Source: Cliona cf. orientalis (taxonomy: Eukaryota > Porifera > Demospongiae > Clionaida > Clionaidae). From it: a DNA stretch of 64,000 bases. Below the pieces are notes generated by a model. The model worked only from the letters and a program-made list of their open reading frames with translations. It was not told where the DNA came from and searched no databases. Location: contig OZ005691.1 of NCBI GenBank assembly GCA_963930775.1, forward strand, positions 2,108,001 through 2,172,000, read 5' to 3'. Within the stretch, counting starts at the first letter, position 1; each line of letters opens with the position of its first letter. Positions 41,179-63,954 of the stretch are shown here, piece after piece. The position numbers were made by a program, and so were the translations under genes.

Positions 41179-43682
41179 TCTCTCTCCCTCTCTCTCCCTT
41201 CTTCTCTCTCTCTTTCTCTCCATCTCTCAGGACGATGCCATGCTCCTGTTTGGGATAACAGCCAGACACGCCGACACAGAACCATTCTCCCCCGGTCTAC
41301 TATCAGCAATGAAGAGATTATGGGAAGACCCTGGAGTGCAGCTGTGCTTCAAGAGATCCAGTGAATATCAACTCAACGATTCTGCACAATAGTAAGTTTA
41401 GCGATTGAGTCAGAGAGAGAGAGAGAGAGAAAGAGAGAGAGTGGGAGGGAGGAAGGAAAGGAGAGATTTACCTGTTCAACTGTATTCATTGTGTTTCCTT
41501 GCCTAGCTGTACTGTTAGCCATGCAAACATTAAGTACAATTGTGTCAGTCTTGTTGACAAGTTACAAGTTTCACTTGATCTTGGCACACCTGTAATATGG
41601 TAGTCTGGGCGCACCATTCATTAGCAGTACAGTGAAATGCTGTGGTTAGTACGAGTAGTAAACGAGAAGCTTTGATTCACAATGAATCACCAGTTCCCTC
41701 TAGCATCTGGTGTCCCTTTGCTCAATGATCTGAAACTAGTAAACAGGCCCTGGGATGTGACAGTGTGTGTGTGTGTGTGTGTGTGTGAATAGAGACAGAG
41801 AGAGAAAATACTATCCCAGCATCAAGTGACACAAAACCATTGAGCTTTGTTTACCGTCACAAGTTCTAATGTTCGTATGACATTGAATAAAATTAATATC
41901 CAAAGCTATATATTTCTTACATCCTCTCAAACTTTAGTCTCACCCAAGAAATAGTGAGTTTTTTTACTCGTGCACTATCCCACTGCGTCCACTTTTATAA
42001 ACGGTAAAAAATGTTTGGTGCATATACCAGGAGCACATGAGGGATCTCTTAATGTGCTCCTGATATACATAACATGCAACAACTAAACTTGCCCAGATGA
42101 TCCTCTCTTAACGTCACTGGGGGGATTTTGTTCCTGTCCTCTGTCCAGCCATGATGGAGTCCTTTAGGACCAGCTAGCCCTAGGTGTGTTGTGTCTGCAT
42201 GCTTCTCTGCTGGAAGCTATAGATCAAAGGATGCCCACTGTAGTGAGATGTCTTTGATATTGGGCCTTGTATGGGTCTGGTCAACTTTCAGCATCCATGC
42301 AGCATGCAGCATGCTTTGGGTGTGACTGGTAGACACGCCCTTAACTACAGTTTATATTGTGAGGTCACAGTCTAAATATTGGGTACCAAATAATATTATT
42401 GAGAGGTGGTCCTTTTGTTCTAGTTTTTACGGTTTTCACTTACACCACACACACTCACACTCACAGTTACCTGGACAGCCTCGACAGAATAGGAGATAGA
42501 AGATACGTACCGACAGTTCACGACATTCTCAGAACAAGAGTGAAATCCACAGGCATCGTAGAGTACGAATTTGACTTCAAATCACTTCACTTCAGGTGAG
42601 CTAGTCGTATTAGGCACCGCCTTCATATTATTGCACATTTCCCAGCTTCTCAATATTGCAAGCTTACTAGCATGCAACATTGAAAAGCTGCAAAGGGCTT
42701 TATACATTCAACTTGTTCGTGAAAACATAGATTTTTATTATTGTGATTTGTTTGATAGAATTGTTGATGTTGGAGGTCAGAGGTCAGAGAGGAAGAAGTG
42801 GATCCACTGTTTTGAGGACGTGACAGCTATCCTCTTCTTCGTTGCTCTCTCAGCCTACGACCTCGGGCTCCGGGAAGAACAAGCGATAGTAAGTGCTATC
42901 CTATCTCCTTATGTAGATTCATGCAAATTAGAGTAGACATTAGTAGGTTTAGTTGGAGTAAATTTTATGCTTTGAATTCAAAGTCAACCATTTAAAAAGA
43001 ACCTTCGTGTGTCCTTCACCAATCGTGTGACCTTACAGTGTATATTTATTACAGTGTAGAAAATCATAAATCCAGTGTAAATTCTGATACCAGTAGCTTG
43101 TGTAGCTTTTACATGCCCCCATGACAAGATGTTTAAAAACATTGCCATCTCCTCTCTCCAGAACCGAATGGATGAAGCTCTGAGGCTGTTCAACTCCATC
43201 CTGAACAACAAGTGGTTCCTCGACACTTCAGTCATCCTCTTCCTCAACAAGAAGGATCTCTTTGAACAGAAAATCAAGGAACGACCTTTACCAGATGTGT
43301 TCCCTGACTTTAGAGGTATGTTCATGTGACGATCTTTACCTATAATATGCGGTCTAGAGCATTATCATTGACTGCTGTGTTATTTTGTATAGACCCTGAT
43401 TTGCCAGGGGTGGGGAGCCATTGTAAATGCCTTTATGATTTTCTGCTTAATGCCCCTATTACTATAATGCTTCTTTTTCCCTTTTTTATAGGGAGAAACA
43501 CCTACCAAGATGGTGTGAATTTCATCAGAGACAAATTTGTTCGGCTCAACAGAAACCCCGGCCGCAAGACGGTCTACACTCACGTCACATGCGCCACAGA
43601 CACAAGTAACATACAGTTTGTATTCGAGTCTGTCACGGACATTATCATCGCCGAGCACCTCAGAGAAACAGGACTATTTTAA
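24830..43682 (+). CDS. Heterotrimeric G protein alpha subunit, Gi/o class
   Basis: Join 24830-24947, 36729-36771, 37462-37603, 41231-41391, 42467-42595, 42759-42888, 43162-43315, 43492-43682; 355 aa. This is the membrane-attached GTPase that relays GPCR signals to effectors and binds G-beta-gamma. Visible: MGC start (Gly2 myristoylation, Cys3 palmitoylation), P-loop GAGESGKST at 40-48, helical domain with EYQLNDSA, switch I arginine R179, switch [14 protein letters not shown] with catalytic Q205, NKKD, and TCATDT near the C-terminus. All GTPase motifs are intact. Gi/o class is inferred from [28 protein letters not shown] and the GLF end. Oddities: Thr replaces Cys at position -4 (LRETGLF), so the usual pertussis toxin target is missing; Ser182 sits where Gi has the Mg-binding Thr. 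The start has a good context (A at -3). All exon phases close exactly. Confidence 0.96.
27558..27632. repeat. Compound poly(C)-(CT)n-poly(C) tract
   Basis: A C run, about 15 CT units, then a C run of nearly 30. Homopurine-homopyrimidine sequence of this kind can adopt non-B structures; only composition is seen here. Confidence 0.9.
31828..32110. mobile_element. G-rich repeat element, copy 2
   Basis: Begins GCAGGGTTTTATACAGAATT followed by AGAGGGGGG and ends CCCCCCCCTCTAAATAAATCACTG. These are the reverse complements (diverged) of the two ends of 7067-7450. About 280 bp with internal G-run repeats and no coding capacity. Confidence 0.6.
36729..36771 (+). CDS. G-alpha exon 2 (P-loop)
   Basis: 43 nt between CATAG and GTAAGC. 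Encodes the phosphate-binding loop and first helix, [13 protein letters not shown], and closes a split Gly at the start and a split Lys at the end. Confidence 0.96.
37462..37603 (+). CDS. G-alpha exon 3
   Basis: 142 nt; acceptor CTCTCAG after a CT-rich tract (37411-37460), donor GTAAGT. Encodes [19 protein letters not shown] through [10 protein letters not shown], the start of the helical domain. Confidence 0.96.
39773..39981. repeat. Tandem duplication, period about 128 bp, with (GA)n
   Basis: ATATGGGTTCCATGACAATT...CTAGCTAGAGAGA...GACCTTGCTAGG...GACAGATGGATTCAG occurs from 39773 and again from 39901. The second copy carries a short CTGG insertion. The copies are nearly identical, so the duplication looks recent. 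Confidence 0.85.
41128..41228 (+). repeat. (CT)n tract at the acceptor of G-alpha exon 4
   Basis: About 100 bp of CT with CCCT interruptions running into CATCTCTCAG, the acceptor itself. Confidence 0.95.
41231..41391 (+). CDS. G-alpha exon 4
   Basis: 161 nt; one codon longer than I recall for vertebrate Gi. Encodes [15 protein letters not shown] through [14 protein letters not shown], the rest of the helical domain. Donor GTAAGT splits a Tyr codon; the in-frame TAG that follows is only met if the intron is retained. Confidence 0.96.
41411..41467 (+). repeat. (GA)n tract just after G-alpha exon 4
   Basis: Begins about 20 bp after the exon 4 donor and is complementary to the CT tract before the same exon. 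Confidence 0.9.
42467..42595 (+). CDS. G-alpha exon 5 (switch I)
   Basis: 129 nt. Encodes [10 protein letters not shown] through [22 protein letters not shown]. Contains R179, the arginine finger, followed by K181-S182-T183. Confidence 0.96.
42759..42888 (+). CDS. G-alpha exon 6 (switch II)
   Basis: 130 nt. Encodes [20 protein letters not shown] through LREEQAI, with Q205 needed for GTP hydrolysis. Ends in phase 0 at GTAAGT. Confidence 0.96.
43162..43315 (+). CDS. G-alpha exon 7
   Basis: 154 nt. Encodes [18 protein letters not shown] through PDVFPDFR, with the NKKD guanine-specificity motif. Donor GTATGT. Confidence 0.96.
43492..43682 (+). CDS. G-alpha exon 8 (C-terminus)
   Basis: 191 nt to TAA at 43680-43682. 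Encodes [27 protein letters not shown] and the receptor-contacting tail ending LRETGLF. Confidence 0.96.
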
Positions 43683-44384
43683 TGAATGTTCTATCACATT
43701 GTTGTGTGTGGAATTTGTGTGTGCGTATGTGTTCTCTGGATTGGGTTAGTGTGTTATGTGTTGCTACATGTGTCAAAGTCATGCAGGCTGTGTTATTATT
43801 ATAAGCTGAAATGTCTACCCATTATAATAATGCTTTTCTTTATACTTTACATACGTACATGTATGTGACAATTATTATTACTATTCTCACATTCTGGTCC
43901 TTTTCATACCTTTTGCTATTATACACTGTTTTAAGGAATTGTTATAATTTCTCTAGTACATTGCCTATTTATGTGGCGCATTCTGTTAACATTGATATTA
44001 TCTATACTCTTTGTACTGTATATGTACGTATACAATATCGTGTCAGGCGTACTTGTCATTTTAACTCTGAAAACAAAATTAATTTCAAGTTCAACCAAAA
44101 TATTAATTTTAATAATGCAGCTACAGGAAGACAATCATAATAATAATATGCATTACCATATTATTATACCATGATTGGGTATGGGATAGATACATGACAT
44201 TGTTACTAAAATTCCATGAACACCAAAAATTTAATAGTATCAAATTTTGCATTGTAGCTACTTCAAAATAATAATGTACTGCTATAAAATATTGCAGGAT
44301 CAGATAATGTATAATTCCAAGTAAAAGCATGACATTGTGCAGTGAATAAAGTGAGAAATATTATAATATGACGCCAAATTAAAA
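43683..44384. other. Convergent 3' UTR region of G-alpha and the ankyrin-ROC gene
   Basis: 702 bp between the two stop codons. The plus strand has AATAAA at 44345-44350; the minus strand has ATTAAA at 44235-44230. If both are used, the transcripts overlap tail-to-tail by roughly 100 bp. Sequence is otherwise AT-rich. Confidence 0.5.
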
Positions 44385-44695
44385 CTACTGTTTTAGAATT
44401 GCCCTTAAACTATTGGCAACATCACCAAATGCAGCACGTCTGAGGCACTTGATGAGAGTGTCCCAGGTGCATGGTTGGGCTAGGTCATGTTCTCCATCCA
44501 GCCATCTCATAAACATCTCCTGACAAGCTTCCTCCTTACTCCAACTGTAGTCTTTCTCTATAGTCTTGATTCTAGACTGGTCAAAGCCGAGTGCTATTGC
44601 CAGGACCTTCCAGTCTGGGGCCACTCTTTCAATGACTCGAACTTTCCTGGTGACACCTTCCAGCAACTGTAGCTCATGTAGTTTGGGCCGGTCAC
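44385..44695 (-). CDS. Ankyrin-ROC gene exon 11: death domain
   Basis: Acceptor AATCACAG at the high-coordinate side; stop on the low side. Encodes DRPKLHELQLLEGVTRKVRV then the six-helix death-domain pattern (W..LA..LGF....I..I, ACQEMFMRWLDGE, TWDTLIKCLRRA, VANSLRAIL). The death-fold call rests on this pattern. Confidence 0.9.
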
Positions 44696-47600
44696 CTGTG
44701 ATTGAAGCATAAAAATGCACTTCAAGTCCTCTTGTAGTGTAGCTAATACTATACACCCCAAGCCAGAAACTCAAAACACAGTTACATGGTTGTGAGTACA
44801 TAGTGAGTTTATATACAGTACAATAAGACGTACCAATCTTGAGGATAGATGTATTTCCGTGGTAGTTCTGAATCTCGGTTTTACCATGTCGAGCTGATGC
44901 TATTAAAAATGAATAATAATAAGATGTAGTAGTGACTGTAAATGTTGGAGCTGGTTATGCACTAGCTATGACTTAAATATTAATAAAAAAACTGTATAAT
45001 TATAGTTATAGACATACCAGTGCTGACAGATGTGGCAGAGTCTGACCCATGATACTGGCTGACGTGCTGGTCTGCATGATCAGTTGGGTTGGTGGCTGAT
45101 TCAGCTACAGCAGGTGTTGTTCTGCCTGCACAGTTAATAGAGGGAGCAGGCAATCACTCAATGGTACATGTAGAATAACAAAAATATCAGAATTATCTCA
45201 GGCAATTCTATTACTCTAAAATAACTTTCCTTTCCTATGGTTTAATAAGATGCTTATTTACTAGAAGTACTTACGTATGATTAGCTCCAATGGATTTCTG
45301 CCAGCAAAGACACTGAACTGGTCTAGCTTCTTCCTAAAGTTCGTTTGTGTTCCCTCCTTTCCCATACTGTCCCTCCACAGTTGGAACACCTGTAATAGCC
45401 CACGGACACCATCATGGGAAGCGCATGCGTCAATGTCTTGCTCAAAGATAACGCAGAATTCATTTATGCTCTTTCGTAAACGTTTGCGTGAATGCTTGGT
45501 AGCAATGTCAGTCAAAAGTTTGTCCGTGATTTCTTGGGCTTCTGTGACATCTTTGCTGAATATCTGTTGAAGAAGAAGCTCACCTAGGTAAGCGTAAGGC
45601 TCAAAGCAAATCCGCTTCTCAAGTTCAACTTTCTGATTCTTATCGTTAATGGCAAACTTCTTTCCTTCTGCAATGGTCGCTGCCACCTCAGTGATGCTGA
45701 CACCAGTCACCTTGCTGGGGTCAAGAGGGTACACAGCAGCGTCTTCTAGGAGAATGAGTGACTCTCGGACAAGAACCTTTGAACAGAACTCCTCCTTTGC
45801 ACTGATAACAGTTTTGATGACAGCAGAACGAAGCCTCACTAGCTCCATCTCCTCGAGTTCAGAGCGAACAATAACCACAACCTGTCGCAGATTGTTGACT
45901 TCAACAATGGCTTCACCTCCAGATCGATTGACCCAGTAGATCCCATTCTTCCACACACTACACTTCCTGTGCAGGGCTAGACGATCACCAGTGGAGGGAT
46001 CGCTTGGAGCAAGAGCAAATAAAAAAGCCAATCGAAGGAGAAGAACCTGAAGAAATCGACTGCTGAAGAACTGCTCGGGTTTTGAACACTGGAGCACCCA
46101 CCCACTGTTGTAGTCAAGCTTTGAGGCACCAGACTCAATGACATCTCGAGGTGTGTCAAGATGTACAAGACCTGGAAAGAAAAAGTATCGCTCACCAGCT
46201 GTTGGAGTTGACTGGCCCTCAGCTACTAGTAGAGATGCAAGCTTGAGCTCTTTAATCTCTTGGCAGAACTCTAGGTGGCACAAAAATTGAGTGATCATAT
46301 CTGAATTGATGTTTGGAAAGAGTGGGGCAAGCTTAGACAGTGGCACCACACCTGTGCTAGTGGAGAGACTCTCCTGATGCTCCTTGAACCCCTCAGGGGC
46401 AAAGATGACTCCATTGACCTGGGAGAGAAGAACAGCTTTATTTAACACTATCCAGCTTCTTTCTGGGCACTCCTTATTCTCCATGAAGAGAATGCTACCA
46501 CGCTCATTCAACTTTTTACACATCTTCAGAGGATTGGAGGATTTTACACATTCAAGATATATATATTGTATATTACGATCGTTCAGTCTCTGTCTTAATT
46601 CATCTGCTGCATCACTGTATGTTATGGCTAATCTATCTCTGAATCTATGGAGCAGGAATACCAGGAAGCAGTGGTGAGCAGCTGCCATTTCCTCTGAGCT
46701 TCTCAGTGACCGGCAGATTTGAGAGAGTATGGAGCGTAGCTTAGTCATGGATGATGACTCAGCATATCGACAGTCGATGACTATCTGCCCAGCGAATGTG
46801 ACACTGTCAATTTTATGGCCATTTACCACTGACTCCAGAGCTCTTGATTTCTGCTTTACTTCACTGGAAGGTATCACATCGGCATGGCTGCCAATGATCA
46901 GTAGGTGTGGCTTAGCCCCTCCTCCAGAGCTGTGGTTGTTGATGAATTGGAACCAGTACTGAAGTGTTCCTCTGATCTTGCCCTCTTCATCCCTCATGTC
47001 CACCACCAGTGTAACGATGGATGGAGAATTTGTCATTGTGTTGTGAAGGAGGGCATCGTGCCCTGCGTAGTATTTCTTGTGACCAGCAAAGTCGTAGAGA
47101 GTCAGGCGCCCTAGAGCTTTACTGTGGATGTCATGAGGAATGATGCCAGCGGTCTTCTCATCAACATCTCTCACCTTGGTGAACTGATGCTTTATTCGTG
47201 AGAAGCCTTGACCTTCAGTGCAGAGGGCCTTGACGAAGGTGCTCTTGCCAGCACCTGAGTTGCCAAGAACAAACATTTTGATGGCCATATCAGTTGGATT
47301 ATCTCGCAAGTGGCTAGGGAAGCATGAAGTAGTAGGTTTAGCTCCACTGCTAAGAAGAAGACGAATAAGTTCAGGCTCACTAGTGTAGTCCAGTGTTGTT
47401 TCGCCACCATAATATGAAACACAGTTGGGATCACACTTGGCTTCTTGCAGTAAGAAAGAGGCAACAGCTGTGTGGCCACCCCTGTATATGGGAAGAAATT
47501 AGCCATGATCAATATACATCATGAATAGACTAATAATTATTTAGAGAGACAAAGCAAACCCCACTCTAATGACACCATGAGAAAATTCATAAATTGCTAC

Positions 47601-50600
47601 ATCTACATGTACATGTATGTATGTACTTATAATGTATTTGTATCTAGATATGTGTGTGTATGAGGAGATACACCGTTCATATGTACAACACAAAATTATA
47701 CATATACATATGCATGTACACACTGTACATACGTTTGTGTACGTAATCATATGCATACATGCACATATATATCGAATACTGGTCAACGCTGATTGTGTGT
47801 ACATGTATATACGTAGCTCTCCTAGCAAGGCTGTTGTGGAGTAGCTATACAAGCCAGGATATTTATCACTGAAGCTGACACTCGAGCAGCAATGTACAAT
47901 AGAGAAGTAAAGAAATTTTACCGTAGTATGCAACAACTACACAGGGTACATAGGGCCAAACACTACTCTACAAGACTGTATGCACGCTACTACGCTTGCA
48001 CTACGTAAACTTTATTTGACTACTACTGTTAGAAAATGAATTGCAGACAAAGGCAAGCCTAGGGAAACATCACAGTGCAGTGCCCAGTTTGTGAGTGGCT
48101 AGTTGTTTCGCTATGATACACAGAACAGCAGTAGTGATGGGTGTGAGTGTTGTGGTTTCCCACAAACAGCTGGTGGTTGAATGATGTCTACCCACAATGC
48201 TCTAGCAGTTGTACGTACACACACATAGTGAATCAAATTGTGCCCTTGACATCAATTTTAATTGGCACATTAAAATCAAATAGTAACAACATTAATTATT
48301 TTTATTTTAATCTGCTATATCTAATAAGGTGAACATGACATCAGTTATGCCATACTTACAGACAAGCATGATGCAGTGGAGTGTGTCCTAAAAAGTCAGT
48401 GCAGTTTGGACTACATTTCAGATCCTTAATGAGATACTTGGCAAGGGGTAGACATCCATTCCTAAATATTATTGAGGATGAAGTAGGGTAGAGTTTATTA
48501 TTGTGATACATGTGTAATAGTTTGTATTCATGTACAAGTCTGTACCTGCCCACATGGTCCTCACCATCCACCCCTCCCCCCACCCTGTGCTGTGCTCGTA
48601 TAGTGATCAAGTCCTAAGACTACAACTGTAAGAGCAACCACAAGGAAAAACCACGGCCCTATGATATGGATAATACAAAGATACTACTGCCATGTTTAGT
48701 TCCATAATAATTATTACTCCTTCTAGGAGCAGTGCCACAATCACACCACTTGCATAGTGAGATTCAGCTATTACTAATGCTATGGCCAAATTTAGTTCCC
48801 TCATAATTAGTGCTACAATCACACCACTTAGTGAGAGAGACATGCATCCTCTTGGAATGGTACTGTTACAGTATAGCGGAAAACGTTCATGAATTTTATG
48901 GTTTGAGAGCCATCCATGAAAGTCTTGTCCACAAAATTCAGGATTGTCCCACCCAACTATATGATTGATTTAGCATTCCACAAAAGTTTTCTCTGTGAAA
49001 TTTTCGCTTCTTCTGATCTGTGAAGGTTTTTCCCCTCGAATGTTTCCCACTATACGTGTACTGTATGATGGGTAAATTTGTGAGGTGCTAATTTTTGTTA
49101 GTTTATATCATGAATAAATGAAATGTTTGGTGAGCTGAAACAAGCTCCACTCATATTCACTCACTCCTTTGATGAGAAATGATACGTCGTTCACATTCTC
49201 ATCATAAAATTACATGTTCATACATATTAAATTTTGTACACAATGATGTCATCCTATTGTTATAGTGATGACTGTAACCTAAACACTGCTATAGCCACAG
49301 TCAGTCAGCTACCCACCTACTAAGGGTTAAATTTTTGAAGACAATTAGGTTTGGTGTGACTATATACCTGGTCTCTAGTGCCTTAGTACTGCACTTACTT
49401 GTCCAATGCACATTTCAAAGGCTAAATTGCACAATCATGTGTGGGTCACTACATAGTGAATAATTGTGGCCTTGACATCAATTTTTGTTGGCATATTTAA
49501 AATCAATTACTAATTTTATTTTGCTATCTACACGTTACATCTAATGAGAATAGGGTATCAGTTGTACCATCAACTTACCAACAAGCATAATGCAGTGGAG
49601 TCCATCCATCAGTGCCAGTGCAGGTTGGACTACATTTCAGATCCTCTATGAGATACTTGGCAAGGGGTAGATGTCCATAACTAAAATCGAGGAAAAAGTA
49701 ATAAATCTCATCACAGTACATGTAACTAATTTTTATAAATCTCATCACAGTACAACCAATGATGATGAAGCACTATAGTGCAAAACCCTTGGCGCATGAG
49801 CTATAGCTAGTCTGCATGTTGCAAATTTGTAAAGCCAAGCAGCACTACAGTTTGTTGGTAGTTGCCTAGCAACCAAAGTTTTTATAGGCAATTTTCTGGC
49901 TATGGGAAGGGGGTGGGTTATCATAATGATGAACAGAGATCAACTACCAACAAAATAGTTACAGTCAAGTTCTAAGAACTATCGCTAGAGCTACACACTA
50001 CTAATCTTGAAATGAAGCTATTGCTGTCTTTTATCAATCAACAGCTCATCAAGAAGCAAAGAAGGCCATGTTGGGTAAATTTCATGGGGTGCTAATTTTC
50101 ATTAATTAGTATAATGGTGAGCTGAAGTCATATTCACTCTTGCTCACCCCTTTGAGAAAGCTGCATATGTATTCATGTATGAAGTGATATGTCGTTCACG
50201 TTCTCATCATAAAATTATTCAAGTTTATACGCACGTACACACTTACATGACATTGGATATCAAATACTGGTCAATGTTGATCGTGTGTAAACTCTAAATG
50301 TAGCTCTCCTTACAAAAGCTGTGGTGGAGTAGCCACACAAGCCAGGGTTAGTTATCACTGAAGCTGACACTCAAGCAGCAATGTAGGTAGACTTAGAAAA
50401 TGTACTACAAGCCCAGGGAAACCCCACAATGCAGTGCCCTGTTTGAGTCTGGTTATATAGTTGTTCTGCATTAGCAGTCAAAAATTTAATACTGACTGTC
50501 ACTGATGGTGGTGTTTGCATATACACAGAACAGCAGTAGTGATGCTAAAAATTTGTATCTGAATATTTTTCTGTGGAGTGTGGGGATCATCTATTGTCTA

Positions 50601-53600
50601 CATGTACAGGATTGTGGCAAGACATTATCTGTGAGCATTTTGCTCACCCCCTCAATAATGTCATCCTATTGTTATAGTGATGACTGTTATTAAAAACTGC
50701 TATAGCCACAGTCAGTCAGCTGCCCACCCACTAAGTACTAAAGACAATTAGGCTAATTGGTGTGACTACATAGTACAACATGTAATTTCCTGGTCTCTAG
50801 TGCCTTAGTACTGCACTTATTTGTCCAATGCACATTTCAAAGGCTAAATTGCACAATCATGTGTGGGTCACTACATAGTGAATTCATGAATTGAATTGTG
50901 CCCTTGACATCAATTTTTGTTGGCATATTTAAAATCAATTACTAATTTTATTTTGCTATCTACACGTTATATCTAAGGTGAATAGGGGATCATCAGTTGT
51001 ACCATCAACTTACCGACAAGCAAAATGCAGTGGAGTCCATCCGTAAGTGTCAGTGCAGGTTGGACTACATTTCAGATCCTCTATGAGATACTTTGCAAGG
51101 GGTAGATGTCCATTCCTAAAATCGAGGAAAAAGTAATTAATATTTATAAATCTCATCACAGTACAACCAATGATGAAGCACTATAGTGCAAAACCCTTGG
51201 CGCATGAGCTATAGCTAGTCTGCATGTTGCAAATTTGTAAAGCAAGCAGCACTATACAGTTTGTTGGTAGTTGCCTAGCAACCAAAGTTTTTATAGGCAA
51301 TTTGCCGGCTATGGGAAGGGGGTGGGTTATCATATAGTAGGCCAATGATGAACAGAGATCAACTACCAACAAAATAGTTACAGTCAAGTTCTAAGAACTA
51401 TCGCTAGAGCTACACACTACTAATCTTGAAATGAAGCCATCGCTATCTTTTATCAATCAACAGCTCATCAAGAAGCAAAGAAGGCCATGGTACGTGGTCA
51501 GTAAATGTCGCCAGAACTTTTGAACGAAGTATTTTCAATCAAATTCACACATTAATACTTTTAAAAATGCCGTAAAAAGCCTAATGGCACCTTATTTGCA
51601 TCGTATAAACGAGGTATGTAGCAGCTGGCGTGATAATAGACATACACACACAGAACGACTATATAACTGCATGCGCTGAGGGTTAATAATGCTTATTATT
51701 GTGATGATAGTGACAACAAACTTGTGTTTATGTACAGGTCTGTACCTGCCCACATGATCCTCACCATCCACCCCTAGCTCCCCCCACCCTGTGCTGTGCT
51801 CGTATAGTAATCAAATCCTAAGACTACAATTGTAAGCTAGAGTAACCACAAGGAAAAATCACGACCCAACTACGGTCCAGTGGATAATACAAAGATGCTA
51901 CTGCCATGTTTAGGAATTATTACTTCTAGAAGCAGTGCCACAATCACACCACTTGCATAGTGAGATTCAGCTATTACTAATGCTATGGCCAAATTTAGTT
52001 CCAAATAACTAGTGCTACAATCACACTACTTAGTGAGACACACATCCTTTTGGAATGGTACTGTATAGCGGGAAACTTTTGAGGGAGAAAATGTTGTGGT
52101 TTGAGAGGCATCCGTGAAAATGTATCCATGAAATTCAGGTTTGTCCCACCCACCTATAGCATTCCATGAAACTTTTCTCAGCGAAATTCCCTTTTTCTTC
52201 TTTTCTTCTGATCTGTGAAAGTTTTCTCCCTCGAATGTTTTCCGCTATACATGGTACTGTATGGCGGGTAAATTTCATGGGGTGCTAATTTTCATTAATT
52301 AGTATATTGGTGAGCTGAAGTCATATTCACTCTAGACTTGCTCACCCCTTTGAGAAAGCTGCATATGTATTCATGTATGAAGCGATATGTCGTTCACATT
52401 CTCATCATAAAATTATATGTTCACTCAAGTTTATACGCACGTACACACTTACATGACATTGGATATCAAATACTGGTCAATGTTGATCGTGTGTAAACTC
52501 TAAATGTAGCTCTCCTTACAAAAGCTGTGGTGGAGTAGCCACACAAGCCAGGGTTAGTTATCACTGAAGCTGACACTCAAGCAGCAATGTAGGTAGACTT
52601 AGAAAATGTACTACAAGCCCAGGGAAACCCCACAATGCAGTGCCCTGCTTGAGACTGGTTATATAGTTGTTCTGCATTAGCAATCAAAAATTTAATACTG
52701 ACTGTCACCGATGGTGGTGTTTGCATACACAGAACAGCAGTAGTGATGGAGTATAAAGCTAAAAATTTATATATCTGAATGTTTTTCTGTGGAGTGTGGG
52801 GATCATCTATTGTCTACATGTACAGGATTGTGGCAAGACATTATCCGTGAGCATTTTGCTCACCCCCTCAATGATGTCATCCTATTGTTATAGTGATGAC
52901 TGTTACTTAAACACTGCTATAGCCACAGTCAGTCAGCTACCCACCCACTAAGGGTTAAATTTTTGAAGACAATTAGGCTTGGTGTGACTATATACCTGGT
53001 CTCTAGTGCCTTAGTACTGCACTTACTTGTCCAATGCACATTTCAAAGGCTAAATTGTACAATCATGTGTGGGTCACTACATAGTGAATAATTGTGGCCT
53101 TGATATCAATTTTTATTAGCATATTAAAATTAATTAGTAACTTTGCTATCTAAGGTGAACAGGGCATCAGTTGTACCATCAACTTACAAACAAGCTTCAT
53201 ACAGTGGAGTCCGTCCACTAGTGTCAGTGCAGGTTGGACTACATTTCAGATCCTCAATGAGATACTTGGCAAGGGGTAGATGTCCATTCCTAAAATCGAG
53301 GATAAAAGTAAAGTAGAGTTTTATAAATCACATCATATATAGTACACCCCATAATTGTGATGATTGTGACAGCAAATTTGTGTTCATGTACAAGTCTGTA
53401 CCTGCCCACATGGTCCTCCCCATCCCCCCTCCCACAATGCATGGACAATCAACACTGGCTAGCCTTGGATTTCTCCCACATGCATAGAATCAAGATCAAA
53501 GTATAGCGACACTTACATACTGAATCAGAAGTGCATGATAATATCGAGAAAAGCAAGCATAGGGATGTATAGCGGATATGATAAGTTATCTTGGCTACAC

Positions 53601-56600
53601 TGTAATCTTGTTTGCGTACTTTTTGACCCTGCCATCCTTACTTCATCCTTCAATTTTATTCAATTGTTTTCTATACTTGTGTATGAAGCGATACATTATT
53701 CACGTTCTCTCATCATATTAATGCAAAATGATGTCATCCTATCGTTATAGTGACGACTGTCACCTAAATACTGCTATAGCCACAGTCAGTCAGCTGCCCA
53801 CCCACTAAGTGTTAATTTTTGAAGACAACTAGGCTTGATGTGACTACATATACTAGTGTCATGCAGGGCCTGTTTGGGGCGAGCCTGAGCTGAGCCTCTG
53901 AAAGTCTCTGCCAGTAGCTGCGACTCGAAAACTTTAATAAAGCCATAGCATGATAGATCTTGAAGACTACTGATACAGATTCAAGTAAACAATGACAGAC
54001 AGTCTCATTGTGTTGTGTAGGCCTGTATAAATGTAGGTCTACAGCTGCATGATAGTTCCCTCCATCCTTCCGCAGTGCCAACAGTCAATAAAAATTTTAA
54101 TTGCCTCTGTTACCAGAGTCATCAGTGAGCAGCACGTCTACTCTACCTTTATCGATCGTGTTCTTAGCTGGTCCTTGCGCTGTTGAGCTGATGACGAGCT
54201 CTGCCTCGCTCTCTCCTCCTTTGGAGCCTTCTGCTAATACTTCTGTACCGCGCGCTTGCACCGCCGAGTACTTGTACAAGCACGAGTGTAAATTTGCAAT
54301 TCGCTAAATTAGAACGGCGTATATACGGCCCGTGTCCCAGGCATGAGAATGCGCAATAGAATATTTCGCGTTTATGTCCGTAGAGCATCACTGCATGGGT
54401 ATATAATTTCGCGTGACGGACGTACCATAATGATAATAATAATATATGATAATATAAAATTCGCGCACAGCTGTACCGTTTATGTGGGGCTCGCTCAGGC
54501 TCGCCCCAAATATAATTATATAATACTATATATATGTAATTTCCTGGTCTTTAGTGCCTTAGTACTGCACTTCTTAGTCCAATGCACATTTCAAAGGCTA
54601 AATTGCACAATCATGTGTGGGTCACTACATAGTGAATTAAATTGTGCCCTTGATATCAATTTTTGTTGGCATATTTAAAATCAATTATTAGTTTGCTTTC
54701 TACACGTTACATCTAAGGTGAATAGGGTATCGGTTGTGCCATCAACTTACTGACAAGCATAATGCAGTGGAGTCCATCCATCAGTGCTAGTGCAGGTTGG
54801 ACTACATTTCAGATCCTCTATGAGATACTTGGCAAGGGGTAGATGTCCATTCCTAAAATCGAGGACAAAGTAATTAATTTTTATAAATCTCATCACAGTA
54901 AAAGTATGTTTAATGTCACAATCATGGGATAATGTGGCTAGCATGCATGATCATCTATTAGCAGTACATGCTCACAAAACATAGAGACATAGTTCATGCA
55001 CAAACAGTATCCTGCCTGGGCAAGATTGCCCATTAGTACCGTGCGCATGCGCAGATGGAAGCGGTTGCACACCCCTTGGCAAGCAAGCAGCTCCAACTAA
55101 GTGTGCAATGGCAACGTTCTCGCTCTGCTCGAAAGTTGCTACCGGAGGTATGAACAGACCTCGCCTCTCGCTTCGCTCGAGGCTCAGTGGCTAGCGCCAG
55201 CGCCTGCATAGCAAGCCTTTCAAAACGCGCGGCGCTTTCGCGCCGATCGTTCGACAATGCGTCCCTAGCTGTAGCTATGGTCCGAGGCATTAAGGCCACT
55301 CTTCTTTGTGCACACGGCCCAACAGTTCTGACCAATCATGAGGCTTGTAGTGCGGCTCGTTCATAGCGGTGCATCCAAGACGTGTATCCATGCCCTCATA
55401 TAATGACACGGACTATAATATAAGAAAAATGACTGTCTGAAAAATATTTTTCGTTGTATATAGTATAACAACCAATGCTGAAGCACTATAGTGCAAAACC
55501 CTTGGCACATGAGCTATAGCTAGTCTGCATGTCGCAAATTTGTAAAGCCAAGCAGCACTACAGTTTGTTGGTAGTTGCCTAGCAACCAAATTTTTTATAG
55601 GCAATTTGCAGGTTATGGGAAGGGGGTAGGTTATCATTATACCAATGATGAACAGAGATCAACTACCAACAACTGAGTTACAATTAAGTTCTAAGAACTA
55701 TCGCTAGAGCTACACACTACTAATCTTGAAATGAAGCCATCGCTGTCTTTTATCAATCAACACAGCGGCTCATCAAGAAGCAAAGAAGGCCATGGTGGTC
55801 AGTAATGTCGCCAGAACTTTTGAACGAAGCATTTTCAATGAAATTCACACAATTCATACTTTAAAAATGCCGTAAAAAGCCTAATGGAACCTTGTTTGCA
55901 TCGTATAAATCAGGTATGTAGCAGCTGGCGTGATAATAGACACAAGAACGACTATAACTGCATGCATGTAATAATGTTTATTATTGTGATGATAGTGATA
56001 ACAAACTTGTGTTTATGTACAAGTCTGTACCTGCCCACATGGTCCTCACCATCCACCCCTCCCCCCACCCTGTGCTGTGCTCGTATAGTAATCAAATCCT
56101 AAGACTACAATTGTAAGCTAGAGTAACCACAAGGAAAAATCACGACCCAGTGGATAATACAAAGATGCTACTGCCATGTTTAGGAATTATTACTCCTTCT
56201 AGGAGCAGTGCCACAATCACACCACTTGCATAGTGAGATTCAGCTATTACTAATGCTATGGCCAAATTTAGTTCCAACTAACTAGTGCTACAATCGCACT
56301 ACTTAGTGAGATACACATCCTTTTGGAAAGCTGCATGTATGAACCGATATGTCGTTCACGTTCTCATCATAAAATTATATGTTTACTCAAGGTTATACGT
56401 ACGTACATACTTACATGACATTGGATATCAAATACTGATCAATATTGATCGTGTGTAAACTCTAAAATTAATGTAGCTCTCCTTACAAAAGCTGTGGTGG
56501 AGTAGCCACACAAGCCAGGGTTAGTTATCACTGAAGCTGACACTCTAGCAGCAATGTAGGTAGACTTAGAAAATGTACTACGAGCCCAGGGAAACCCCAC

Positions 56601-59600
56601 AATGCAGTGCCCTGTTTGAGACTGGTTATATAGTTGTTCTGCATTAGCAGTCAAAAATTTAATACTGACTGTCACCGATGGTGGTGTTTGCATATACACA
56701 GAACAGCAGTGGTGATGGAGTATAAAGCTAAAAATTAATATCTGAATGTTTTTCTGTGGAGTGTGGGGATCATCTATTGTCTACATGTACAGGATTGTGG
56801 CAAGATATTATCCGTGAGCATTTTGCTCACGCCCTCAAAGATGTCATCCTATTGTTATAGTGATGACTGTTACCTAAAAACTGCTATAGTCACAGTCAGT
56901 CAGCTACCCACCCACTAAGTACATACACATGTAGACATCAATTTTTGCTCACCCCTTCGATGATGTCATCCTATTGTTATAGTGACCACTGCTACCTGCT
57001 ATAGCCACAGTCAGTCAGCTGCCCACCCACTGAGTGTTACTTTTTTGAAGACAGGTGTGACTACATAGTACTACATGTAATTTCCTGGTCTCTAGTGCCT
57101 TAGTACTGCACTTCTTTGTCCAATGCACATTTCAAAGGCTAAATTGCACAATCATGTGTGGGTCACTACATAGTGAATTGAATTGTGCCCTTGATATCAA
57201 TGTTTGTTGGAATATTAAAATTAATTAGTAACTTTGCTATCTAAGGTGAACAGGGCATCAGTTGTGCCATCAACTTACCTACAAGCATAATGCAGTGGAG
57301 TCCGTCCAAAACTGTCAGTGCAGGTTGGACTACATTTTAGATCCTCAATGAGATACTTGGCAAGGGGTAGATGTCCATTCCTAAAATCAAGGATAAAAGT
57401 ATAGTAGAGTTTTATAAATCACATCATAGTACACCCTATTGTGATGATAATGATAACAAATTTGTGTTTACATGTACATGTATGTACAAGTCTGTACCTG
57501 CCACATGGTCCTCACCATCCACCCCTCCCCCCACCCTGTGCTGTGCTTGTATAGTAATCAAATCCTAAGACTATAACTGATAAGAAACTAGAGCTCTATA
57601 GAACACATACCCCTGAGCTGCATCTGCATCCTGCACAGAGATGAGAGGTGCAGTAGCACACGTGAACCTGTTGACGACCTTTACCTCTTCAATACTCTGT
57701 GTGTGAGCAGAATGCATATGGCCTAGTAGGTGTGGCTACAGTGGCCAACAAAAGGTACTATTGTGACGCTCGTGGACCGTATCCATTGATTCGAAGCATA
57801 CTGGAGCCAGTTTTTTGCCAAGCTCAGTTGATTCGTTGTGCTTATGAGTCGCTCAGATGCCAGATAGGGCAATTTTTGTACAATGGATGACAGACTGAAC
57901 CAATTACTTTACACAGGGTAAATGTCATGTCCTTATGGATGATACAAAATGCTATGGCAATAATAATATTTGCTTCAAAAAAATAATATATTACTGGTAC
58001 TTCTTCTAGGAGCAGTGCCACAATCACACCACTTACTGAGATGTAGTGTTATGCTCTTGGAGTGGTACATACTCATTAAATTTAAGTGAACTAGAGCACA
58101 AGTGGCTGCCTGTATTCTTGTTAGCTACTGGTGTTTTAGAGATATATAAGTATCTACATGTTTATACATGTAAGCGATTTCTTGACAGTTCGATTTATTG
58201 TATAGGAAAATATTTCACTAGAAAAACATTTCACTAAGGCCATTCCAAATAAATTTCCTGTTTCCCGTCCACCGCCCGCATCCTTTTCTGGCATGTCACA
58301 AAATTTCCATTATTAGTACTTTTGTATGTATGCAATATCCGCATTTACTTTTGTACACGTAGTGTTCTTGCCTCAAGTGAGTGATAATTAATTAGTTTAA
58401 GTGTTTCCTGTAGGCCTTGCTACTATGTAAATAATGGAATTTACCGCCCGCCCGCATACTACATTAGTTGTTTTCAGGACGGGAAACAGGAAATTTATTT
58501 GGAGTGGCCTAAGGACTGTATAGGGGCAAAAATCAAATTTCGTCAACAATCTAAATATGCACATAATATTTACTTGTGCAGTAGCTGATCCAGGGGGGTA
58601 CATGGCAGTGGCGTAGCCAGGAATTTAAGTAAGAGGGTGATAGACTACGCGTGCGCAAAATTTTAGGCCACGCCCACTTATTAAACGGTACGGTCAAAGT
58701 TCAAATTGTCACAGAGAACGCGTTCTGAACGTAGCTAGCGAGCTGGCTCAAGATTTTCAGCCAAATATTTGAATAAGATAAGTGTCTAACTGTCTTCTAA
58801 GCTATATATTTGTAGTAGATGACGGTTTGGAGTAGCTAAGGAGGTGCTGGATGAGGCTGTTCTGTGGATCATGTCACCTAGTCCAAGAGCAGAAGGGGGT
58901 GCTCGAGCCCCCTGAGCCCCCCCCCCCCCCCCCCCAGCTACGCCACTGATCATGGATAGGGTAGTTAGCTACCCCCCCCCCCCCTCACTAGTTCTTTATG
59001 CAAAGTAGTATGGGAGTAAGTTCGAATATGGCGGCCGCTCGGACAAAGCCTGAAGACTAACCCTGCTAACCATCATACCTGAAATCCAGCCCCTGACCCC
59101 TCTCATTAATGGCCTTGTCCATTCTTCATATGCTCTAAGATCTCTAGTGTGTAATTTCCAATTGCCGGATTGTGCACTAGCTAGGGTAGAGCAGGAGCGA
59201 TGACGCTCTGGGTATATTAATGCACCTGTCAATGGTATGCCCCAGTATCCCCCTCCCGCTCCAAGTAGGGGCATACTAGGGGATTTGAAAATGATCATTT
59301 CAATTGCCCCAGGGTCGGAGCAATATTTGAAGTCAAATCCCCTATTCAGTACATAGTATATCCTAGGGGAACATAGGGGATTTGATTGCCTTCATGCTGG
59401 TTCTGTTGCGACCTGGCAATCATAGCTAGTTTACGTTAATGTGCACGGAAAAGTCAAATGCCCCACCCTAGGTCCAGCTTCTTCTGTAAAAATCCCTTGG
59501 TACCCCTTGGTTTTGCGCGGGAGGGGGATAGTGGGGCATGCCATTGACAGGTGCATAAGTAACTCGTCTGACCAGACCCATTTGTAGATAATTTAAATGG

Positions 59601-59825
59601 GGCTCTATAGTCTGGGATTATGAAGTATTACAAGAAGGATAATGTCATACAGTACCGTAAATAAGGGGGCTAGTCTCACCTGCAAGCATAGTGCAGCGGT
59701 GTTGTATTCCTGGGCCAACTGTTCTTATCGACCACCTTCCTCACGTCAACTCCATCAGCAACAGCCTGACGAACTCTGGCGATGTCTCCTCTCTCACAAG
59801 CATCGAACAAAACCCTTGTAGACAT
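44385..59825 (-). CDS. Ankyrin-ROC-COR-death-domain protein (kinase-less DAPK-like ROCO protein)
   Basis: Minus-strand join, 5' to 3': 59680-59825, 57279-57380, 54751-54852, 53188-53289, 51014-51115, 49579-49680, 48360-48461, 45275-47481, 45018-45125, 44834-44899, 44385-44695; 1149 aa, all phases close. Ankyrin repeats fill about residues 1-300. A ROC GTPase domain follows, with P-loop GNSGAGKST (326-334), DFAGH (383-387) and SHAD in the NKxD position (451-454). COR is about 510-890, a Ser/Thr-rich linker 990-1047, and a C-terminal death domain about 1065-1149 (DWKVLAIALGF..., RWLDGEH..., TWDTLIKCLRRA). ROCO proteins are dimeric GTPase switches, and death domains recruit partners by homotypic binding. 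This order matches the tail of DAPK1 without its kinase and calmodulin segment. The first exon has a start in good context (A at -3) and begins an ankyrin repeat directly, so no kinase exon is expected upstream. Role is inferred: a cytosolic signalling or innate/apoptotic adaptor. Confidence 0.94.
44834..44899 (-). CDS. Ankyrin-ROC gene exon 10
   Basis: 66 nt, AATAG acceptor and GTACGT donor. Encodes SARHGKTEIQNYHGNTSIL, a short alternating segment that could form a beta hairpin before the death domain. Symmetric in phase, so it could be skipped in frame. Confidence 0.82.
45018..45125 (-). CDS. Ankyrin-ROC gene exon 9: linker
   Basis: 108 nt, TGCAG acceptor and GTATGT donor. Encodes a low-complexity linker rich in Ala, Thr, Ser, His and Asp (RTTPAVAESATN...). 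Symmetric in phase. Confidence 0.82.
45275..47481 (-). CDS. Ankyrin-ROC gene exon 8: last ankyrin repeat, ROC and COR
   Basis: 2207 nt; acceptor TATACAG, donor GTAAGT. Begins with an ankyrin repeat (GGHTAVASFLLQEAKCDPNC, ELIRLLLSSGA), then the ROC GTPase from about residue 318. COR shows its hallmark pattern (LNERGSILFMENKE, RSWIVLNKAVLLSQVNGVIF). After COR, a helical stretch (LLQVFQLWRDSMGKEGTQ..., residues about 905-988) looks like a further death-fold. Long plus-strand open frames here are shadows. Confidence 0.95.
47482..48359 (-). other. Ankyrin-ROC gene intron 7
   Basis: Contains a strongly diverged copy of the cassette-intron block (ATACTGGTCAACGCTGAT... and GAAGCTGACACTCGAGCAGC around 47770-47890). 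The duplicated unit therefore once extended this far. No exon recognised. Confidence 0.6.
48360..48461 (-). CDS. Ankyrin cassette exon A1 (exon 7)
   Basis: 102 nt, starts with one base and ends with two bases of split codons. Encodes NGCLPLAKYLIKDLKC..., with ...FLGHTPLHHAC at the 3' end. The most diverged cassette: Cys for His at position 3, Lys for Glu, Asn for Thr. Confidence 0.92.
48462..49578 (-). other. Ankyrin-ROC gene intron 6
   Basis: Shares blocks with the other cassette introns: CTGTACCTGCCCACATGGTC (48540), CAGTCAGTCAGCT (49300) and CAATCATGTGTGGGTCACTA (49433). Holds the decayed MITE at 48868-49060. Confidence 0.75.
48868..49060. mobile_element. GTATAGCGGG MITE, decayed copy
   Basis: Ends GTATAGCGGAAAAC and TTTCCCACTATACGTG. 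The inner arms (AAAAGTTTTCTC, CCTCGAATG) are eroded. Same family as 52059-52256 and 63742-63954. Confidence 0.65.
49579..49680 (-). CDS. Ankyrin cassette exon A2 (exon 6)
   Basis: 102 nt, phase 2 to phase 2. Encodes YGHLPLAKYLIEDLKCSPTC, then a variable tip TGTDGWTPLHYAC. The only cassette starting TAT (Tyr) instead of AAT (Asn). Confidence 0.94.
49681..51013 (-). other. Ankyrin-ROC gene intron 5, duplicated unit
   Basis: About 1.33 kb, extensively similar to introns 4 and 2. Shared blocks: GCACTATAGTGCAAAACCCT (49772), GACATTGGATATCAAATACT (50249), CAGTCAGTCAGCTGCCCACC (50710). Confidence 0.8.
51014..51115 (-). CDS. Ankyrin cassette exon A3 (exon 5)
   Basis: 102 nt, phase 2 to phase 2. First 20 residues NGHLPLAKYLIEDLKCSPTC, then TDTYGWTPLHFAC. 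Confidence 0.94.
51116..53187 (-). other. Ankyrin-ROC gene intron 4, duplicated unit
   Basis: About 2.1 kb. Repeats intron 5 block for block from about 51160 and again from 52260, and also contains the CTGTACCTGCCCACATGATC block (51741) and the MITE at 52059-52256. Compatible with an unequal exchange that joined two unit types. Confidence 0.75.
52059..52256. mobile_element. GTATAGCGGG MITE, intermediate copy
   Basis: Left end TACTGTATAGCGGGAAAC, right end CCTCGAATGTTTTCCGCTATAC. About 200 bp, internally diverged. The homologous place in intron 5 (about 50065) lacks it. Confidence 0.7.
53188..53289 (-). CDS. Ankyrin cassette exon A4 (exon 4)
   Basis: 102 nt, phase 2 to phase 2. Scaffold as in A3; tip TDTSGRTPLYEAC. 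Tyr-Glu replaces the His-Tyr of the TPLH motif, the strongest departure from ankyrin consensus among the cassettes, but the frame is open. Confidence 0.93.
53290..54750 (-). other. Ankyrin-ROC gene intron 3
   Basis: Cassette-intron sequence split by the 638-bp insertion at 53873-54510. Confidence 0.75.
53873..54510. mobile_element. 638-bp insertion with 18-bp inverted ends
   Basis: Starts TTTGGGGCGAGCCTGAGC and ends with its reverse complement. Paralogous introns run from TGACTACATA to ATGTAATTTCCTGG without it (for example near 50765). The interior is CpG-rich and has a 60-codon minus-strand frame starting MYKYSAVQARGTEVLAEG (54279-54097). It may be a captured first exon; no family recognised. 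Confidence 0.7.
54751..54852 (-). CDS. Ankyrin cassette exon A5 (exon 3)
   Basis: 102 nt, phase 2 to phase 2. Scaffold identical to A3 and A6 over the first 20 residues; tip TSTDGWTPLHYAC. Confidence 0.94.
54853..57278 (-). other. Ankyrin-ROC gene intron 2
   Basis: About 2.4 kb of cassette-intron sequence (blocks at 55487, 56023, 56415, 56895 and 57000). A GC-rich insertion lies at about 54900-55468. Confidence 0.75.
54900..55468. mobile_element. GC-rich insertion in intron 2
   Basis: Intron 5 reads CTCATCACAGTACAACCAATG continuously (49736 on). Here CTCATCACAGTA is followed by about 570 bp before ACAACCAATG resumes. AGTA flanks both sides and may be the target duplication. The interior has a palindromic TGCGCATGCGCA (55042-55053), many CpGs and a CCAATCA. 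It looks like moved promoter-type DNA. A 100-codon Arg/Ala-rich minus-strand frame is probably a by-product. Confidence 0.6.
57279..57380 (-). CDS. Ankyrin cassette exon A6 (exon 2)
   Basis: 102 nt, phase 2 to phase 2. Scaffold NGHLPLAKYLIEDLKCSPTC; tip TDSFGRTPLHYAC. First cassette after the start exon. Confidence 0.94.
58238..58509. mobile_element. PIF/Harbinger-like MITE 1
   Basis: 272 bp; 33-bp terminal inverted repeats starting GGCCAYTCCAAATAAATTTC with one mismatch, flanked by TAA on both sides (58235-58237 and 58510-58512). A TWA duplication with GGCC-type ends fits the PIF/Harbinger superfamily. Non-coding. Confidence 0.72.
58606..58948. mobile_element. MITE with CAGTGGCGTAGC ends (hAT-like)
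   Basis: 343 bp; perfect 12-bp inverted ends CAGTGGCGTAGC / GCTACGCCACTG. Ends of the CAGTGGCGTA type are common for animal hAT elements. No clean 8-bp target duplication seen. Ends in a long C run at 58918-58935. Confidence 0.6.
59221..59555. mobile_element. PIF/Harbinger-like MITE 2
   Basis: 335 bp; inverted ends of about 39 bp starting TGCACCTGTCAATGG with two mismatches, flanked by TAA at 59218-59220 and 59556-59558. Non-coding. Confidence 0.72.
59680..59825 (-). CDS. Ankyrin-ROC gene exon 1 (start codon)
   Basis: ATG at 59825-59823; donor GTGAGA. Encodes MSTRVLFDACERGDIARVRQ through TTPLHYAC, a first ankyrin repeat starting at the N-terminus. Its last two bases join in frame to A6, and would join equally to any other cassette. 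Confidence 0.9.
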
Positions 59826-60082: not shown

Positions 60083-63677
<3,595 letters not shown>

Positions 63678-63741
63678 CTGTGGGATTTTAATAAAAAAGC
63701 ATAGTCATGACAACCAGTGCTCACCCAAGACCCCAATTTTT

Positions 63742-63954
63742 ATACCGTATAGCGGGAAATTTTCGAGGGAGAAAACTTTCGCGGATCGGTAGGAAAAGAG
63801 CATTTCGCGGAGAAAACTTTCGCGGAATGCAAAAACTGATCGGATAATGGGTGTGGCATGCCTAGAATTTCGTGGAGAAAACTTTCGCGGATGGCTGAAA
63901 AATCGCGAAATTCGTGAAAGTTTTCTCCCTCGAAAGTTTCCCGCTATACGGTAT
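63742..63954. mobile_element. GTATAGCGGG MITE, best-preserved copy
   Basis: 213 bp; inverted ends of about 45 bp starting ATACCGTATAGCGGGAAA, with further internal copies of GAGAAAACTTTCGCGGA. A TA at each edge could be the target duplication. Two older copies lie in the ankyrin introns. Confidence 0.75.

What the first reader, a model, noticed from the sequence alone, without database searches (positions are those of the whole stretch)
48360..57380. Array of six interchangeable 102-nt ankyrin cassette exons
A1-A6 are all 102 nt, all start with one base and end with two bases of split codons, and all have consensus splice sites. Any of them can be skipped, duplicated or lost without a frameshift, and each encodes exactly one 34-residue unit. 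This is a natural design for variable repeat number through splicing or unequal crossing-over.
Basis: seen in the sequence. Interest (0 to 1): 0.8.

Follow-up and report, generated by a model that had tools for sequence, protein, structure and literature searches.

The report
Hypervariable ankyrin exons in receptor cluster
Six exons of one gene each encode one ankyrin repeat, and the same kind of exon occurs about a hundred times in a large family of neighbouring genes that keep the repeat's frame constant while changing just the few residues that would touch a binding partner, as expected of a rapidly diversifying recognition system.

Summary
They lie in an 11-exon, 1149-aa gene on the minus strand: ankyrin repeats, ROC-COR GTPase, Death domain. 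It is one of about 36 such genes in a ~0.68 Mb head-to-tail cluster holding at least 99 cassettes. Array length differs between paralogues: 6, 6, 3, 2, 2, 2, 0 in seven fully read loci.

The cassettes are not interchangeable. 87 compared cassettes are 87 different DNA sequences with a nearly constant 27-codon framework. Variation sits at ankyrin positions 1, 2, 3, 5, 10, 13, 14, which include the DARPin positions 2, 3, 5, 13, 14. Hypervariable codons differ 3.1 times as much as flanking intron, framework 0.29 times. A sister subfamily repeats the pattern.

Best reading: diversifying selection on a recognition surface, with array length changing between gene copies. Variable number by splicing is possible but untested. 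Closest parallel: brown-algal LRR-ROCO genes with one 72-nt phase-2 exon per repeat.

The parts
59680..59825 (-). exon 1: start codon, N-terminal ankyrin cap, ends in phase 2
   Evidence: 39 matches to it (itself included) in the cluster
57279..57380 (-). cassette A6 (first in transcript), 102 nt, ...TDSFGRTPLHYAC
54751..54852 (-). cassette A5, 102 nt, ...TSTDGWTPLHYAC
53188..53289 (-). cassette A4, 102 nt, ...TDTSGRTPLYEAC
51014..51115 (-). cassette A3, 102 nt, ...TDTYGWTPLHFAC
49579..49680 (-). cassette A2, 102 nt, ...TGTDGWTPLHYAC
48360..48461 (-). cassette A1 (last in transcript), 102 nt, ...TDFLGHTPLHHAC
45275..47481 (-). large exon: last ankyrin-like unit, Roc GTPase (P-loop GNSGAGKS), COR
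   Evidence: COR by fold of a near-identical protein
45018..45125 (-). linker exon
   Evidence: frame and splice sites only
44834..44899 (-). linker exon
   Evidence: frame and splice sites only
44385..44695 (-). last exon: Death domain and stop codon

Best explanation
The window holds one member of a clustered family of intracellular ankyrin-ROC-COR-Death proteins in what looks like an animal genome. Each 102-nt phase-2 exon is one ankyrin repeat with a fixed scaffold and seven hypervariable positions on the binding side. Together the array makes a modular recognition surface; binding is inferred to switch the ROC-COR GTPase and let the Death domain recruit a cell-death or immune adaptor. Diversity is germline-encoded. 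Whole genes duplicated with their arrays, cassettes were gained and lost in frame between gene copies, and diversifying selection changed the contact residues while purifying selection, perhaps with some gene conversion, kept the scaffold uniform. Shown: gene structure, cluster, array-length differences between paralogues, the placement and excess of variation. Inferred: ligand binding, immune or allorecognition role, signalling. Not shown: any use of alternative splicing.
Against: No ligand, expression or phenotype data. Positions 1 and 10 together have piN about equal to piS (0.469 and 0.421), and position 1 does carry synonymous variants (GAC 41, GAT 6; AAC 16, AAT 4). Some hypervariable sites are correlated (6 of 21 site pairs at p<0.05). 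Between the window gene and its near-identical copy, hypervariable codons changed no faster than introns (1 of 108 against 107 of 13,001). In 2 of 6 cluster ROC exons read in full the frame ends early, so part of the family is decaying. Gene conversion of introns could inflate the codon/intron ratio. No likelihood site test was run.
Confidence: 0.62

Rival explanations
1. The array is a splicing switchboard: one gene makes many isoforms by including different cassettes, so that repeat number and binding surface vary between cells.
For: Cassettes are symmetric phase 2 with strong sites (GTAAGT donor in 79 of 87, TTTTAG acceptor in 69 of 87). Brown-algal ROCO genes with one repeat per phase-2 exon are reported to be alternatively spliced (PMC11378527, passages). 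Further upstream of the last cassette (100-400 nt) the minority of sites that align diverge only 2.1-4.8%.
Against: No transcript data. Introns within 100 nt of first and last cassettes of five genes diverge 5.7-11.5%, those beside the constitutive ROC exon and exon 1 7.3-7.8%: no extra conservation there. Strong consensus sites fit constitutive splicing.
Confidence: 0.2
2. Ordinary modular ankyrin gene: exon symmetry is a by-product of old exon duplication, and the variable residues are merely unconstrained surface positions drifting neutrally.
For: Ankyrin genes with one repeat per exon are known (recalled). Loop and turn positions of ankyrin repeats tolerate change (recalled).
Against: Neutral drift should not exceed intron divergence: hypervariable codons differ 0.383 per site, flanking introns 0.123. 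Third bases of two-fold codons at positions 3, 10 and 14 are almost fixed.
Confidence: 0.1
3. A programmed or targeted mutation process (as in diversity-generating retroelements) writes new codons at these positions.
For: Cassettes with nearly identical flanks can differ strongly: in 19 pairs, hypervariable 113 of 342 sites against flanks 78 of 4012 and framework 20 of 1539.
Against: A mutator blind to the code would also make synonymous changes; 176 T to 4 C says otherwise. The window gene and its copy show no excess (1 of 108). The 19 pairs were picked for low flank divergence, and similarity mostly falls off further out, which local conversion could explain.
Confidence: 0.04
4. Paralogue differences are assembly artefacts (collapsed or misplaced haplotypes).
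For: One gene pair differs at only 107 of 13,001 aligned bases, gaps aside.
Against: 87 of 87 compared cassettes differ; the near-identical pair lies 0.6 Mb apart on one contig with different intron lengths; 27 of the 120 proteins listed are ROC paralogues on contigs of 389,334 and 2,853,096 bases, lengths that differ from the 11.96 Mb contig here, so apparently another assembly.
Confidence: 0.03

Closest known systems
Brown-algal LRR-ROCO genes (Teng 2024, PMC11378527: outline, abstract and passages seen; Zambounis 2012 only as cited there)
   Same: ROC-COR core; one repeat per exon; repeat exons of one length and phase 2; family expanded; positively selected sites on the concave face; proposed immune receptors.
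   Different: LRR exons of 72 nt there, ankyrin exons of 102 nt here; algae there, a Death-domain protein here; alternative splicing reported there, untested here; here cassettes tend to keep their place in the array.
Fungal NLRs with highly conserved ANK/TPR/WD repeats (Dyrka 2014, PMC4986451: passages seen)
   Same: Near-identical repeats with a few positively selected positions, nearly all on the concave face; repeat-number variation.
   Different: NACHT/NB-ARC proteins; repeat number there varies between isolates at one locus, here shown only between paralogues; here each repeat is a separate exon. That paper found high internal conservation in only 0.8% of metazoan repeats.
DAPK1-type ROCO proteins
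   Same: Ankyrin, ROC-COR and Death domains in that order (recalled for DAPK1; the Pfam Roc model is described as 'domain of DAPkinase').
   Different: No kinase domain in the gene model; large tandem family; diversified repeats.
DARPin binder libraries (PMC3602593, passages seen)
   Same: Constant ankyrin framework with variation at positions 2, 3, 5, 13, 14 (residue numbers from the paper; conversion to repeat positions mine).
   Different: Natural; 34-residue rather than 33-residue unit; positions 1 and 10 also vary; DARPin positions 26 and 33 (recalled) do not.

Membership tests
ROCO family | Roc GTPase domain with P-loop | tested here: met
   PF08477 31.2 bits against cut-off 27; GNSGAGKS; LRRK2 Roc chains by sequence, best E 5.4e-5
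ROCO family | COR domain directly after Roc | tested here: met
DAPK1-type (ANK-ROC-COR-Death) | Ankyrin repeats before ROC, Death domain at the C-terminus | tested here: met
   Ank_2 208.6 bits, Death 36.9 bits against 22.6
DAPK1-type (ANK-ROC-COR-Death) | N-terminal protein kinase (recalled) | tested here: not met
   Exon 1 encodes the start codon and an ankyrin cap; no kinase among the Pfam matches. An unrecognised further 5' exon is not excluded
LRR-ROCO exon-cassette receptors of brown algae | Repeats are LRRs | tested here: not met
   Repeats are ankyrin; it works like these but is not one
LRR-ROCO exon-cassette receptors of brown algae | One repeat per phase-2 exon, selected surface sites | tested here: met
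   Exon form; excess of variation. No PAML-type test was run
LRR-ROCO exon-cassette receptors of brown algae | Alternative splicing of repeat exons | not testable with these tools
   No transcripts held; indirect intron test gave no support within 100 nt
Repeats with high internal conservation (fungal NLR kind) | Over 85% identity between repeats over at least 100 aa | not tested
   The paper's T-reks measure was not run. Pairwise exon differences in the window are 5-19 of 102 nt
Repeats with high internal conservation (fungal NLR kind) | Repeat-number polymorphism between individuals | not testable with these tools
   One genome; only paralogues compared

The most novel reading that the evidence does not exclude
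An animal runs a cassette-based recognition system: dozens of ankyrin-ROC-COR-Death genes each carry a row of hypervariable one-repeat exons whose inclusion varies by splicing, or between individuals by copy number, giving each cell or individual its own set of DARPin-like sensors, a convergent counterpart of the brown-algal LRR-ROCO system and of fungal incompatibility receptors.
Probability: 0.2. Interest if true: 0.88.

Novelty: new variant of a known kind. Interest (0 to 1): 0.63.

Why it matters
It looks like a natural ankyrin binder library: about a hundred repeat exons with a fixed scaffold and variation concentrated at positions that protein engineers chose independently. If the proteins are non-self sensors, this is a large, germline-encoded, modular recognition family built on ROCO rather than NACHT proteins, and the same solution (ROCO core, one phase-2 exon per repeat, selected contact residues) has been reported with a different repeat in brown algae. 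It makes questions about allorecognition and symbiont recognition in simple animals testable, since each gene's likely contact residues can be read from the genome.

Tried and rejected
Argued against: neutral drift of surface residues (hypervariable codons exceed intron divergence); code-blind hypermutation (synonymous third bases nearly fixed at positions 3, 10, 14, and no excess between the window gene and its copy); recent duplication within each gene as the main source of cassettes (nearest relative in the same gene for 2 of 84). Looked for and not found: extra conservation within 100 nt of cassettes (but see the last cassette's upstream intron, 2.1-4.8% at 100-400 nt among the roughly 290 sites per bin that align); further cassettes in seven fully read loci; further cassettes in the cluster with a second, divergent query (93 cluster rows, none new against the 99; checked). 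Both searches score only 150 candidates (of 1147 and of 314), so 99 is a lower bound.

Caution on my strongest-looking numbers. The 19 pairs with both flanks under 3% divergent were selected for that; the unselected ratio is 3.1, and one of the 19 pairs differs at only 1 of 18 hypervariable sites. The six full hypervariable codons were chosen from the same data; the tests with the DARPin positions, with the window gene left out, and in the sister subfamily avoid that. Dropped before the 87-cassette counts: two cassettes with in-frame deletions, one 105-nt and one broken cassette, two inverted ones, and the six of the near-identical copy. Flank comparisons use the 2116 of 3741 pairs that align on both sides.

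A single-sequence fold was useless (pLDDT 33). A search for cassette-sized proteins found one, on a contig of 2,853,096 bases. A tandem exon-duplication literature search returned nothing. Searches for an animal ankyrin counterpart listed none by title and abstract start; one search showed 10 of 92 papers, and only open-licence papers are held, so this is weak evidence of novelty. Of papers I saw: passages of PMC4986451, PMC8683736, PMC3602593 and PMC6590788; outline, abstract and passages of PMC11378527; only search listings of the rest.
Full report

Setting. The genome has 217 Mb in 149 contigs and is unnamed; the Death and ROC architecture points to an animal (inference). A cassette search finds 99 closely similar exons between C3:2.156 and 2.829 Mb (150 of 1147 candidates scored); a second query adds none there. 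Searches with the ROC part and with exon 1 find 38 ROC rows, merged by me into 36 (some are fragments or carry a stop, one is only 57% identical), and 39 first exons in the same stretch. All these ROC and exon-1 rows are on the minus strand; the window gene is the one at the low-coordinate end.

Copy number. By coordinates, 35 first-exon-defined arrays hold 1 to 6 of the 87 compared cassettes: nine with 1, eleven with 2, nine with 3, three with 4, one with 5, two with 6. These are lower bounds where genes were not read in full. Seven loci were read in full and hold 6, 6, 3, 2, 2, 2 and 0, with nothing scoring between 23 and 135; the last lacks the start of its ROC match and may be a remnant. 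The gene most like the window's lies 0.6 Mb away, has the same six cassettes in the same order, differs at 107 of 13,001 aligned bases in the five main collinear blocks (gaps aside) and has an internal stop in its ROC-COR exon.

What varies. I fetched the 99 cassettes; 97 score above 100 and 95 of these are 102 nt with AG and GT. Leaving out two inverted ones and the six of the copy gene, 87 remain: 87 distinct DNA sequences, 85 distinct 33-residue translations, and 86 distinct combinations of residues 1, 2, 3, 5, 10 with the first two bases of codon 13. The repeat reads about xGHLPLAKYLIEDLKCSPTCTxxxGxTPLHxACx. In ankyrin numbering (D1-x-x-G-x-T-P-L-H) the variable positions are 1, 2, 3, 5, 10, 13 and 14; the intron splits codon 13. 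In a DARPin, interacting residues 46, 48, 56, 57, 78, 79, 81 and 89 are said to be at randomised positions (PMC3602593). All five vary here.

Is it selection? At the six full variable codons piN is 0.424 and piS 0.203; in the other 27 codons 0.031 and 0.059. ROC-COR exons of seven family genes have pN/pS 0.30-0.70 in 21 of 21 pairs. Against flanking intron (mean divergence 0.123, 2116 of 3741 pairs alignable) the variable codons differ 0.383 and the framework 0.035; bootstrapping over genes gives ratios of 2.84-3.45 and 0.24-0.33. With one cassette per gene, variable-codon piN/piS is 1.33-2.68. Third bases of two-fold codons at positions 3, 10 and 14 are T in 176 and C in 4 cases. So the change is mostly in amino acids, which speaks for selection and against a mutator blind to the code. 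Position 1 is less clear: it has synonymous variants (GAC 41, GAT 6; AAC 16, AAT 4), and positions 1 and 10 together have piN close to piS.

Replicate. Eleven cassettes of ROC relatives (54-60% identity for the subfamily) were fetched; ten have the 102-nt AG/GT form. Their framework differs, yet positions 2, 3, 5, 10 and 14 vary again; mean entropy at the six positions is 2.20 bits against 0.42 elsewhere, p 5e-5; for the four DARPin positions alone also p 5e-5. Position 1 is nearly constant there, and positions 19, 26, 28, 31 and 32 vary moderately. In the window's own six cassettes the four DARPin positions give p 0.0008.

How arrays arose. Judged by flanking intron, a cassette's nearest relative is in the same gene for 2 of 84 and in the same place class of an array for 56 of 84. 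The window's own introns do share blocks of about 0.15-1.1 kb at 72-95% identity. The simplest account is an ancestral multi-cassette gene, whole-gene duplication, and gain or loss mainly of middle cassettes (inference). Some local conversion is likely: pairs exist with 1 to 3 differences in about 200 nt of flank and 6 to 9 of 18 in variable codons, though another such pair differs at 1 of 18; similarity mostly falls further out.

Splicing. Strong splice sites and equal phase allow skipping, but nothing shows it. Within 100 nt, introns beside the first and last cassettes of five genes are not more conserved than those beside constitutive exons (5.7-11.5% against 7.3-7.8%); upstream of the last cassette the alignable minority at 100-400 nt diverges only 2.1-4.8%. 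No transcripts are held.

Function. By analogy with brown-algal LRR-ROCO genes (PMC11378527) and fungal NLR repeats (PMC4986451), and from the Death domain, I infer an intracellular recognition protein in immunity or allorecognition. Ligand, signalling and expression are unknown.

Verdict.

Noticed in passing
G000:C3:2248059 and C3:2591293 (L056, L082): Two cassettes lie inverted relative to the cluster yet keep an open frame and AG/GT sites.
   Followed up: partly
G000:C3:2744001-2761000 (L049, L050): Near-identical copy of the window gene 0.6 Mb away with the same six cassettes, different intron lengths and an internal stop in its ROC-COR exon.
   Followed up: partly
G000:C3:5.52 and 5.78-5.87 Mb, C13:2.27 Mb (L096-L105): ROC relatives with their own framework and the same 102-nt phase-2 hypervariable cassettes.
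   Followed up: partly
window 60100-63750, minus strand: Patatin-like phospholipase exons upstream of the gene (one 42-aa piece, Pfam Patatin E 3.4e-4, below its cut-off).
   Followed up: no
window 60846-61123: About 260-280 bases of CT-rich repeat on the minus strand, running into an acceptor-like TGTAG of the patatin-like gene.
   Followed up: no
window 41200-43700, plus strand: Looks like a G-protein alpha subunit gene (one 59-aa piece, Pfam G-alpha E 1.7e-12, 47.6 bits against a cut-off of 48.8).
   Followed up: no
G000 C5:2.26-2.62 Mb, C6:10.19-10.27 Mb, C13:7.03-7.20 Mb, C14:6.86-6.90 Mb: Further groups of ROC-like matches, many in long single open frames: the genome seems to have several expanded ROC families.
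   Followed up: no
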